From Pseudomonas sp. GM78 (lineage in GTDB: Bacteria; Pseudomonadota; Gammaproteobacteria; Pseudomonadales; Pseudomonadaceae): a stretch of DNA of 64,000 nt. This document shows positions 31,630 through 34,209 of this stretch, one piece after another. Numbering within the stretch: the first letter of the stretch is position 1; every line of letters starts with the position of its first letter. The notes below the pieces were generated by a model. The model was not told the DNA's origin. It saw only the letters and a program-made list of their open reading frames with translations, and made no database searches. A program made the position numbers and the translations under genes. The DNA lies in the NCBI RefSeq assembly GCF_000282475.1, contig NZ_AKJF01000083.1, positions 1 through 64,000 on the forward strand. Reading direction: 5' to 3'.

Positions 31630-32061
31630 TCAATGGGTTTTTTTAAGATTTCGATCGGGTATTATTTTAATGTCCATTGACACAAGTGTTGCGTATAGCT
31701 TGCGTGATGACATGCCAGTTATTTTTACAAGGCTCTGAAATGGCTCGTAACGAATAGAAAACTTCTCTATGTCTGAAGGAAAAAAGAATGGGGTATGTTT
31801 ATAGCCTAGGTATGGCTTGAGTAGGTTGTATTCGATATATGATTTTATGGCTTCAACTGATATGCCTAAAATCTGACTAACTTTTGCCCTGCTAAACATT
31901 TCTTTTTTGGGGATAGGTAAGCGCCCGCCGTCCGTTAATAAAAAATCTTTAGCTTTTTTTGCGAGAATAGCTGCGTCGTCTACAGTAAAGCAAGAATATA
32001 TTGATCTTCGCGCAAACGGCGTATGCTTCTTGATTTCGCCCATTTCTGCAGTGGTAGTATT
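31630..32061 (-). pseudogene. Middle segment of the IS-interrupted tniQ/tnsD gene
   Basis: Codes for 143 residues starting NTTTAEMGEIKKHTPFARRS and ending IIPDRNLKKTH before TGA. Removing the IS3 element and one AAAC duplication joins it in frame to the 303-residue TniQ part at 33298-34209, giving a 446-residue protein. It carries a helix-turn-helix unit (MFSRAKVSQILGISVEAIKS followed by FFFPSDIEKF) and the first half of a second (LVKITGMSSRKLYATLVSMD). Without upstream signals it is probably not translated unless the IS provides a start. Six foreign codons from the IS (MTTTVL) are in frame at its head. Confidence 0.75.
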
Positions 32062-32075
32062 CAAAACTGTAGTGG

Positions 32076-32921
32076 TCAACTAATCCCGGACACGACGTTG
32101 AGTTTTTCTTCGGCCCGAGCTGGCGCCAGCCCACCGTTGAATTGATGGGGTCGAACCCAGTTGTACCGATGCATCAAGAAGTGGCTGATATCGCGCTGGG
32201 CTTCTTGAGCCGTTCTGTAGCCCGTGGTCGGTATCCATTCCGTTTTCAAGCTGCGGAACACGCGCTCCATTGGCGCGTTGTCCCAGCAATTTCCTCGGCG
32301 ACTCATGCTCTGGCGCATGCGATAACGCCACAATCGCTGACGAAATAGCCGGCTTGCGTATTGCGACCCCTGATCGGAGTGAAACAGCAGACCCGAAGGC
32401 CTGCCACGCTGCTCGTAGGCCATATCCAGGGCCTTGATCACCAGTTCAGCGTCCGGCTTTTCCGACAACGCCCAGCCCACCACCCGGCGCGTGCAAAGAT
32501 CCAGCACGACCGCCAAGTAATGCCATTTCCCCTGGGCCCAAATGTAGGTGATGTCGCCGCACCAGACTTGATTCGGGGCTGGCACATCAAACTCACGGTT
32601 CAAGGTATTCGGGATATCGAGTCTTTCTACTGTCGCTCGTTTGTAGGCATGGGAGCCGGGTTGTTTACTGATTAAATCAAGCTCGCGCATCAAGCTGCGT
32701 ACTTTGAATCGACCGAGCTGCTCACCGTCTTCACGCATCAGCGACAGGATGCTGCGGCTGCCCGCAGCACTGCGACTTTGCGTGAACAACTCGCTCACCC
32801 GGCTGCGCAACCGAAGCCGTTCAACATCAGGCGTGCGGCGCCTAAGGCGCTGGGCGTAGTAGCACGAACGAGTGACTTCAAACACCTTGCACAGCCAATC
32901 GACTGGCTCATGGACGCTCAA
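32076..32921 (-). CDS. IS3-family transposase OrfB (DDE integrase domain)
   Basis: 281 residues from the first usable start. The frame stays open upstream into orfA to the slippery A6G, so the real product is likely an OrfAB fusion made by -1 frameshifting. HTH_21-type segment 'VSELFTQSRSAAGSRSILSL' and the rve core with 'NQVWCGDITYIWAQGKWHYL' (first Asp), 'GLLFHSDQGSQYASRLFRQR' (second Asp) and 'GNCWDNAPMERVFRSLKTEW' (Glu) are complete, followed by HRYNWVRPHQFNGG. It carries out copy-out/paste-in transposition of the element. Confidence 0.92.
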   Translation of the reverse strand: MSVHEPVDWLCKVFEVTRSCYYAQRLRRRTPDVERLRLRSRVSELFTQSRSAAGSRSILSLMREDGEQLGRFKVRSLMRELDLISKQPGSHAYKRATVERLDIPNTLNREFDVPAPNQVWCGDITYIWAQGKWHYLAVVLDLCTRRVVGWALSEKPDAELVIKALDMAYEQRGRPSGLLFHSDQGSQYASRLFRQRLWRYRMRQSMSRRGNCWDNAPMERVFRSLKTEWIPTTGYRTAQEAQRDISHFLMHRYNWVRPHQFNGGLAPARAEEKLNVVSGIS

Positions 32922-32929
32922 CTGATTGA

Positions 32930-33238
32930 TCAGCGCGTACGCTCGTGATCTTCCGACATCAAGAGCGCGGTAGCCTTTTTTAGTATGGATTTTTCTCGCT
33001 CAAGTCGAGCGATCCGGGCTTCCAGCTCCTGAATCTTTTGTTGTTCCGGCGTCAGCGCCTTGCTCTGAGGGGTGACGCCTTGGCGCTCTTTCTGAACCTG
33101 GTCAACCCAGCGACGCAGTGCCGACTCACCAATGCCGAGTGAACGGCTGGCTTCGATGTAGCTGTAGTTTTGGTTGAGCACGAGGTCGGCAGCCTCGCGT
33201 TTGAATTCAACAGAAAAGGAACGGCGTTGTTTGGTCAT
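32930..33238 (-). CDS. IS3-family transposase OrfA (HTH plus leucine zipper)
   Basis: 102 residues from the ATG at 33238 (MTKQRRSFSVEFKREAADLV). The helix-turn-helix 'YSYIEASRSLGIGESALRRW' is followed by a leucine-zipper-like helix 'KIQELEARIARLEREKSILK'. AAAAAAG at 32981-32975 (codons cta-aaa-aag) is the usual -1 frameshift signal that fuses OrfA to OrfB. OrfA alone usually acts as DNA-binding regulator of transposition. Confidence 0.9.
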   Translation of the reverse strand: MTKQRRSFSVEFKREAADLVLNQNYSYIEASRSLGIGESALRRWVDQVQKERQGVTPQSKALTPEQQKIQELEARIARLEREKSILKKATALLMSEDHERTR

Positions 33239-33297
33239 CTGACACCTCGATCTGGCGAGCATTCTCGCCTAAATGGGTGTCCGGTTTCATTAGACCA

Positions 33298-34209
33298 CTA
33301 CAAAACAGAGCGGAGCTGGCGTAAGGTCAGCAGGAACGGAGCATGGTAATAGGTTAAGTTAGGCAAAGGTTGGTATTTTGTTTCCAAAAATATTCTTGAT
33401 GCTTCTCGTGCGGCAGGAGTGGTGACCAGGACAAAACGCGCTGCAATCCAGAACTTCTCCACATCAGGGTGCAGGCTCTGTAATTTAAATAGGTGCTCCA
33501 GAATTGCCCGGGAATCATCGGTCATGATGGAAAATGCCCCAATGAATATCATTCGCCGAGTCGCATCTGGTACCGTTGGTCTTTCGGGTATGTAGCCTAG
33601 CTGGCGAGTGATGGCAAGTAATTGATCGAAATCGAGTTGGCTGCGGCTACGCATCAGCTCGACCAGCATGCGTTCTAGTCGACATTCCTCAAGCGAACAG
33701 GACTGACACTTCAATGGTTTAACACAATGCCTGCATTTTCCATCGAGTGCATGCCACCATTCGACTGGCATGTGGCAGTCCGGACAATGAGTAAGGTATT
33801 TTTTCTGATGATAAGGACAAAACTCTGAAAATTTCAGATCCCGAATTTGGCGCTCCCAGCCTTCATTGAAGCAACCATCACAATATGCGCCGCTGCGCAG
33901 ACGTATATATGTGATCGGAATTTCTATGCCCCCAATAACAAAACGTCGTCGTTGCTTGGGTCCTTCGATCATTGCATAGAAACCATTCAGGACTCTTGGC
34001 CCATTAATACCTGCCTCAGCAACAAATAGTTTTGCAAAATCTGAGTTCTGTGTGAGCGATGTTGATCGAAAAGTTTGCGGGCCAATGCATAGGCCGTTAA
34101 GTTTTCCCGTAGTCGAAAAGCCGTGGCATTGCGCGGCACGTTTTATCAGGCTATGTGGGCTTTCTTCGGGGAACGGGGTGGGAACGAAGATAAGCTTTTT
34201 CATCTTCAT
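33298..34209 (-). pseudogene. tniQ: TniQ/TnsD target-selection protein, N-terminal part, cut by IS3
   Basis: 303 residues, ending at a TAG supplied by the IS terminus. TniQ marks: the start IFVPTPFPEESPHSLIKRAA ('P.P.ES..S...R') and a zinc-ribbon series C110-x2-C113, C131-x2-H134, C142-x2-C145, C159-x2-C162, C168-x2-C171 (e.g. CPYHQKKYLTHCPDCHMP). In Tn7 systems TniQ/TnsD reads the attachment site and recruits TnsC. Its ATG lies 59 nt inside the end of tnsC, so it is the fourth gene of a coupled tnsABC-tniQ operon. The C-terminal helix-turn-helix part is displaced by the IS (see 31630-32061 and 30415-31611), so target choice is probably impaired. Confidence 0.85.

What the first reader, a model, noticed from the sequence alone, without database searches (positions are those of the whole stretch)
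31630..34209. IS3 element splits tniQ/tnsD; removal restores one continuous reading frame
AAAC flanks the 1235-bp IS on both sides. Joining 33303 to 32063 gives codons ctt-tct-gtt-ttg-aat-act style continuity: ...RSVL then NTTTAEMG..., extending TniQ from 303 to 446 residues without a shift. The insertion therefore looks recent and the target-selection protein of this transposon is disabled.
Basis: seen in the sequence. Interest (0 to 1): 0.75.

Follow-up and report, generated by a model that had tools for sequence, protein, structure and literature searches.

The report
Twice-broken homing gene of genomic island
A large Tn7-like mobile island in a Pseudomonas genome sits inside a two-component regulator gene, and the gene that would let it pick its landing site is broken twice, by a small inserted element and by a stop codon, which probably locks the island in place.

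Summary
Observation confirmed: a 1235-bp IS3-family element (32068-33302, AAAC duplication) splits a tniQ gene; relatives G290 and G352 lack it. The reading is incomplete: their homologues have 849-850 residues, and the 398-aa ORF at 30415-31611 continues the same gene in the same frame after an in-frame stop (31630-31632). So tniQ has two lesions, and losing the IS alone would not restore it. Codon counts show no long decay.

The island's left end is window 30144, inside a response-regulator gene whose other half lies on contig C19 with a 5-bp duplication; a same-species genome has the gene whole. The island is at least 40 kb, probably about 68 kb, so the window's right part is probably cargo. 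Islands in G290 and G396 occupy the same position; a fourth, in G352, sits in a kinase's receiver domain at the same codon register. All four share a degenerate 15-bp motif 35-49 bp away, within the span TnsD binds in Tn7. I infer that TniQ homes on receiver-domain coding DNA. The searches showed no such site.

The parts
32068..33302 (.). IS3-family insertion sequence, 1235 bp, terminal repeats TGTAGTGGTC
   Evidence: proteins
32064..32067 (.). AAAC target duplication of the IS, left copy
33303..33306 (.). AAAC target duplication of the IS, right copy
32930..33262 (-). IS3 orfA (HTH_Tnp_1)
32076..32921 (-). IS3 orfB (rve integrase core)
33298..34209 (-). tniQ piece 1: TniQ domain; ORF ends in the IS
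   Evidence: 90% to residues 1-303 of the 849-aa G290 protein
31630..32079 (-). tniQ piece 2 (first residues come from the IS); ends at the in-frame stop
   Evidence: 75% to residues 301-446 of the G290 protein
31630..31632 (-). In-frame stop, second lesion; sense codon in G290 and G352
30415..31611 (-). tniQ piece 3: C-terminal half with an HTH_17-like match (below the Pfam cut-off), same frame, 18 bases after the stop
   Evidence: 78% to residues 454-849 of the G290 protein
34151..35146 (-). tnsC (TniB/AAA ATPase), 331 aa as in G290
35124..37046 (-). tnsB transposase, 640 aa as in G290 (rve match 30.6 bits, just under its cut-off of 32.6)
37047..37700 (-). tnsA endonuclease, 217 aa as in G290
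37761..38417 (-). orf218, no Pfam family, conserved beside tnsA in three relatives
38635..39591 (+). orf318, no Pfam family, conserved in three close relatives and four more distant elements
39613..40815 (-). KfrA_N coiled-coil protein, placed like TnpT (likeness recalled)
40706..41674 (+). tyrosine recombinase (Phage_integrase), placed like TnpS (likeness recalled)
30144..30420 (.). Left end of the Tn7-like island: CGGTCAATTTCAA..., with a 17-bp repeat at 30230 and 30349
30139..30143 (-). 5-bp target duplication (GGAAG on the luxR strand); the other copy adjoins G000:C19:28168
29828..30143 (-). 3' part of the interrupted BvgA/EvgA-like (name recalled) response-regulator gene, GerE domain
   Evidence: other half at G000:C19
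42136..64000 (.). Probable cargo of the island (antidote-like gene, VWA and MoxR-like cluster, acyl-CoA, thiolase, sulfatase-like, aldehyde dehydrogenase-like and GMC oxidoreductase-like genes)
   Evidence: inferred; families, most below the NCBIfam cut-offs

Best explanation
[quoted passage not shown] It belongs to a large Tn7-like island whose tnsA, tnsB and tnsC are full length. Shown: the IS, the in-frame stop, the element ends, the 5-bp duplications, the interrupted regulator gene and the shared motif. Inferred: TniQ reads a ~15-bp motif coding for GIRC-M/L in a receiver domain, and TnsABC then inserts at a fixed offset just after the conserved lysine codon. Inferred: after the island entered the regulator gene, the IS and the stop (order unknown) cut TniQ into three pieces, so the island can no longer home by this route and is probably fixed.
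For: Pieces 1, 2 and 3 map in order onto one G290 ORF (90, 75, 78%) and one G352 ORF (79, 59, 57%). In 24 loci examined of the 80 from the genome scan, 21 have a single TniQ ORF of 648-853 aa, 2 are split, 1 gave no hit. In G000 the two element ends agree at 12 of the first 13 bases. 5-bp duplications match in 4 of 4 islands with both ends read. The luxR gene is whole in same-species G277; its halves lie on C83 and C19 in G000. Same position in G000, G290 and G396; left junction also in L088. G352 sits in a hybrid-kinase receiver at the same register. The right-end pattern (up to 3 mismatches) occurs in 4 of 398 genus genomes, one copy each. Of 59 receiver contexts, 18 are luxR-like; the G352 target matches the G290 motif at 13 of 15, the other 40 at 9 or fewer. 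G352's own luxR matches 10 of 15 and is intact. Tn7 TnsD binds +23 to +58 (PMC2918618, passages); the motif here is at +35 to +49 (worked out).
Against: The motif alone is not enough: it occurs in a second response-regulator gene in 10 of 10 genomes tested, 0 occupied, and 4 of the 7 luxR sites that match are empty. The pattern was built from the occupied sites, so their matching it is by construction; the independent part is the 13-of-15 agreement of two different genes at one offset. Only one non-luxR target is known. The left end of G396 and L088 begins CGA, not CGG. Pfam HTH matches in pieces 2 and 3 are below the curated cut-offs. No structure could be predicted. G000 is a draft assembly, so the stop could be an error.
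Confidence: 0.75

Rival explanations
1. Only the IS matters: TniQ is naturally about 446 residues and the 398-aa ORF is a separate downstream gene.
For: The 398-aa ORF has its own GTG start 18 bases after the stop; Tn6022 has a TniQ and a separate targeting protein, TnsF (PMC10293859, passages).
Against: G290, G352 and G396 have one ORF of 848-850 residues, and G290 and G352 run across the stop position with no gap; of 24 loci, 21 have single ORFs of 648-853 aa.
Confidence: 0.1
2. The in-frame stop is a sequencing or assembly error and the IS is the only real lesion.
For: Draft genome of 235 contigs; no reads available.
Against: The three pieces are otherwise in one clean frame that aligns with G290 and G352. 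Nothing available here tests the base quality.
Confidence: 0.12
3. The shared luxR position is inheritance of one old insertion, not repeated homing.
For: G000 and G290 are 85% alike in DNA over the core and 79% over the rest of tniQ and the flank, not far apart.
Against: The same-species genome G277 has the gene whole; G396 carries a much more distant core (TnsB 57%, piece 3 28%) at the same position; G352 sits in another gene at the same register.
Confidence: 0.15
4. The truncated 303-residue piece still works as a short TniQ that recruits TnsC, with relaxed targeting.
For: The Pfam TniQ match in piece 1 covers profile positions 2-139 of 142.
Against: The part thought to read the site is lost; the genome gave one match to piece 1, its own. 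TnsE was not searched for.
Confidence: 0.15

Closest known systems
Tn7 (TnsABC + TnsD, attTn7 at glmS)
   Same: TnsA, TnsB, TnsC and a TniQ-domain selector; 5-bp duplication; recognition sequence in a coding region at a fixed offset (Tn7 +23 to +58, PMC2918618, passages; here motif +35 to +49).
   Different: Tn7 inserts downstream of glmS and spares it; this island interrupts the gene it seems to read. Terminal bases are CGG, not the TGT recalled for Tn7. tniQ lies at one end and the motif is outside the other end.
Tn6022-like transposons (TnsF, comM)
   Same: Insertion inside a gene at a conserved protein motif (Walker B of comM; PMC10293859, passages).
   Different: Tn6022 uses TniQ plus TnsF; here one long TniQ, and the target is a receiver domain.
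Other Pseudomonas Tn7-like elements with 37-46% TnsB (L089-L102, L107, L111: 16 loci)
   Same: tniQ follows tnsB on the same strand; TniQ is a single ORF of 756-853 aa in 14 of 16 and split in L096 and L102.
   Different: Their attachment sites were not mapped. I only glanced at the starts of ORFs within 2.5 kb after tniQ, which would miss short gene fragments, so they are no test of the receiver rule.
Tn4652 TnpS-TnpT cointegrate resolution pair
   Same: Tyrosine recombinase and KfrA_N coiled-coil protein, divergent; tnpT and tnpS of Tn4652 are listed for P. putida in PMC3056050 (passages). Domain likeness of TnpT is recalled.
   Different: Here near tnsA of a Tn7-like core; not compared with TnpS or TnpT sequences, and function not tested.

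Membership tests
IS3 family | orfA with HTH and orfB with rve DDE core | tested here: met
IS3 family | Terminal inverted repeats and 3-5 bp duplication (range recalled) | tested here: met
   10-bp perfect repeats, AAAC
IS3 family | Programmed frameshift making OrfAB (recalled) | not tested
   no call
Tn7-like transposon | TnsA, TnsB, TnsC and TniQ/TnsD in one cluster | tested here: met
   TnsA-like, TniB and TniQ above Pfam cut-offs, TnsB rve just below its cut-off; all four match the clusters of G290, G352 and G396
Tn7-like transposon | 5-bp target duplication and inverted ends | tested here: met
   12 of the first 13 terminal bases agree in G000
Tn7-like transposon | Terminal TGT...ACA (recalled) | tested here: not met
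   right ends begin CGG in G000, G290, G396 and G352; left ends CGG in G000, G290 and G352, CGA in G396 and L088. The name Tn7-like rests on the proteins, the duplications and the fixed site, not on this feature, which I recall for Tn7 itself
Tn7-like transposon | Arrays of TnsB sites at both ends | tested here: inconclusive
   one 17-bp repeat at the left end, none of 12 bp or more at the right; short TTTCA-like repeats by eye only
TnsD-type TniQ | TniQ domain plus large C-terminal extension | tested here: met
   the 5 PDB matches with E below 0.01 are TniQ chains (best 5.9e-06) and TnsD 8v32 has E 0.076
TnsD-type TniQ | Sequence-specific DNA binding at the att site | not testable with these tools
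   only comparative evidence

The most novel reading that the evidence does not exclude
A clade of large Tn7-like islands homes on DNA that codes for a receiver-domain stretch (GIRC-M/L ending in the conserved lysine), so it can use different two-component genes as landing pads and disconnects that regulator on arrival; in this genome the island was then fixed by two separate hits in its own homing gene.
Probability: 0.55. Interest if true: 0.65.

Novelty: new variant of a known kind. Interest (0 to 1): 0.45.

Why it matters
An IS in a mobile gene is ordinary. The attachment site is less so: the protein-guided Tn7-like sites in the passages I read are the glmS 3' end, tRNA genes, parE and comM. 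A selector that reads receiver-domain coding DNA would couple arrival of a large island to loss of a signalling gene, and offers a natural pair of targets (luxR and a kinase) for working out which bases a ~400-residue TniQ C-terminus reads. The twice-broken selector shows how such an island may become a fixed part of the chromosome.

Tried and rejected
Natural 303- or 446-residue TniQ: rejected, since no match or 43 ends near 303 or 446. In one search, 13 genomes besides the window's own matched, of 199 searched: 10 have frames of 621-856 aa, 1 has 221 aa and 2 weak matches have stops inside.

Close relatives by a single-protein scan: TnsB in genome contigs and viral contigs gave nothing; an alignment gave 80 loci, of which I examined the first 24. 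Other islands as tests of the receiver rule: in G481 and G694 (piece 3 at 24%) the ORFs after tniQ do not look like regulator pieces, but their ends were not mapped, so this is no test and the rule is claimed only for the close clade. The 15-bp motif as sole determinant: rejected; its reversed control had 1 hit in 10 genomes. A drug-resistance cargo: in the 10 window cargo proteins scanned the one match above an NCBIfam cut-off is a lipid-transfer protein; the other cargo genes were not all scanned.

Print: the listings showed no receiver or response-regulator attachment site. I opened passages of six papers: PMC10293859, PMC8649781, PMC11406308, PMC8473136, PMC3056050 and PMC2918618; 'response regulator' occurs 0 times in the first three. 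No paper was read whole; supplements and subscription papers were not seen.

Full report
The observation. The window carries an IS3-family element of exactly 1235 bp at 32068-33302, with 10-bp perfect terminal repeats and AAAC on both sides. Its ends are supported by other copies: the plasmid search with window 30300-40900 matched 72 records, and of the 20 listed, 11 begin and end at exactly these bases. Its two ORFs match HTH_Tnp_1 and rve. The window's own genome (G000, 7.29 Mb, 235 contigs) has two further partial copies, both starting at base 1 of a contig.

The split gene. The ORF before the IS (33298-34209) has a Pfam TniQ domain (34.6 bits, cut-off 27); the ORF after it has a weak MerR match and the ORF beyond that a weak HTH_17 match, both under their cut-offs. 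I compared the three pieces apart. On G290 they match residues 1-303, 301-446 and 454-849 of one 849-aa ORF at 90, 75 and 78%; on G352 residues 1-303, 301-443 and 454-850 of one 850-aa ORF at 79, 59 and 57%; on G396 they match one 848-aa ORF at 45, 25 and 28%. At DNA level G290 and G352 lack the IS.

A second lesion. Between pieces 2 and 3 there is one in-frame stop (31630-31632) and 18 bases; G290 and G352 have a sense codon there and no gap. Of the 80 loci of the genome scan I examined 24: 21 have a single TniQ ORF of 648-853 aa, 2 are split (L096, L102) and 1 gave no hit. Polarised with G352, codon changes on the window branch are 10:21, 6:11 and 12:19 (nonsynonymous:synonymous) for the three pieces, and 6:18, 7:7 and 16:27 on the G290 branch; the TnsA and TnsC controls are 6:14 and 7:20 on the window branch, 7:9 and 9:22 on the G290 branch. 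There is no sign of long decay. The order of the two lesions is unknown, and the stop rests on one draft assembly.

The island. DNA similarity to the same-species genome G277 ends at window 30143. In G277 this is inside a 220-aa response regulator (receiver plus GerE), next to a large kinase gene that I call BvgS-like from memory. In G000 the 5' half of that gene is on contig C19, up to base 28169, and the 3' half is in the window from 30143 down; they share 5 bases, GGAAG. The two element ends read CGGTCAATTTCAA and CGGTCATTTTCAA inward. C83 ends and C19 begins in a run of C, so they probably adjoin: 40,125 + 28,168 bases, about 68 kb; this join is inferred. The window right of the core is then cargo: VWA and MoxR-like genes, acyl-CoA dehydrogenase, lipid-transfer thiolase, sulfatase-like, aldehyde dehydrogenase-like and GMC oxidoreductase-like genes, of which the lipid-transfer protein alone passes its NCBIfam cut-off. 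DUF1302 and DUF1329 proteins, an MMPL transporter and a reverse-transcriptase fragment are on C19, with genes that look like signalling and chemotaxis genes by eye. PMC8649781 gives median lengths of 14-29 kb and a longest of 140 kb for Tn7-like transposons (passages), so these islands are large ones.

Where the clade lands. The right-end sequence was sought with up to 3 mismatches in 398 genus genomes and found in 4, one copy each, with no hit for the reversed control. Islands in G290 (79,561 bp) and G396 (93,009 bp) are at the same position of the same regulator gene, with duplications AGAGG and GGAGG; L088, Pseudomonas fluorescens C8, shows the left junction there too. The G396 core is distant from the window's (TnsB 57%) and L088 resembles G396 (89% DNA), so at least two lineages use this site. 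The left end of G396 and L088 starts CGA rather than CGG. G352's island (130,537 bp, duplication CTTGA) is in a hybrid-kinase gene, in its receiver domain. In all four islands with both ends read, the duplication starts two bases after the conserved lysine codon of the receiver.

The likely recognition sequence. The four targets share GGYATHCGYTGCMTG, which lies +35 to +49 from the centre of the duplication (worked out). Tn7's TnsD binds +23 to +58 (PMC2918618, passages). As a control I aligned receivers from all loci then held: of 59 distinct contexts with the lysine, 18 are luxR-like, the G352 kinase matches the G290 motif at 13 of 15, and the other 40 at 9 at most. Those loci were gathered for other reasons and are not a random sample. 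G352's own luxR gene reads ATRC where the occupied ones read GIRC (10 of 15) and is intact. Against a simple rule: in 10 genomes the pattern occurs 20 times, with 1 hit for the reversed control; 7 are in luxR (3 occupied, 4 empty), 1 is the G352 kinase (occupied), 10 are in another response-regulator gene (0 occupied) and in 2 the motif's frame holds stops. The pattern was made from the occupied sites, so only the agreement between luxR and the kinase is independent evidence.

How it probably works. By analogy with Tn7 (PMC11406308 and PMC10293859, passages), TniQ's N-terminus would recruit TnsC and its long C-terminus would read the site; TnsA and TnsB would cut and insert. Here TnsA, TnsB and TnsC have the same lengths as in G290, but TniQ is in three pieces. 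I infer that homing is lost and the island is fixed, unless another selector acts in trans. The regulator gene is cut in two, so its two-component pathway is probably silent; this was not tested.

What is new. A Tn7-like element with a TniQ/TnsD is known in kind. In-gene insertion at a conserved protein motif is known for Tn6022 in comM (PMC10293859, passages). A receiver-domain site is not mentioned in the passages I read nor in the listings. I call it a new variant of a known kind.

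Noticed in passing
L051:5199-7120 (G352): tnsB of the G352 island is in two ORFs that are out of frame with each other (499 and 135 aa), so that island too may be immobile.
   Followed up: partly
L102:12825-15151 and L096:13091-15590: tniQ frame breaks in two other Pseudomonas islands (2 of 24 loci); breakage of the homing gene may be recurrent.
   Followed up: partly
window 37761-38417 and 38635-39591: Two genes without a Pfam family (orf218, orf318) are conserved between tnsA and the recombinase pair in three close relatives; orf318 also lies near tnsA in four distant elements.
   Followed up: partly
window 39613-41674: A recombinase and KfrA_N pair travels with a core that also has tnsA, whereas PMC8649781 (passages) links resolvases mainly to loss of tnsA.
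   Followed up: no
L207, L193, L210 and L200: The 5' half of the regulator (or, in G352, the kinase) runs into the island's right end and stops a few codons later with the same short tail VIFKIN in all four.
   Followed up: no
L191, L195, L196, L197, L199, L202, L203, L204, L208, L209: A second response-regulator gene carries the same 15-bp motif in 10 of 10 genomes but no island.
   Followed up: partly
G000 C83 end (L039) and C19 start (L075): Both contigs break in a run of C, probably one assembly gap inside the island.
   Followed up: no
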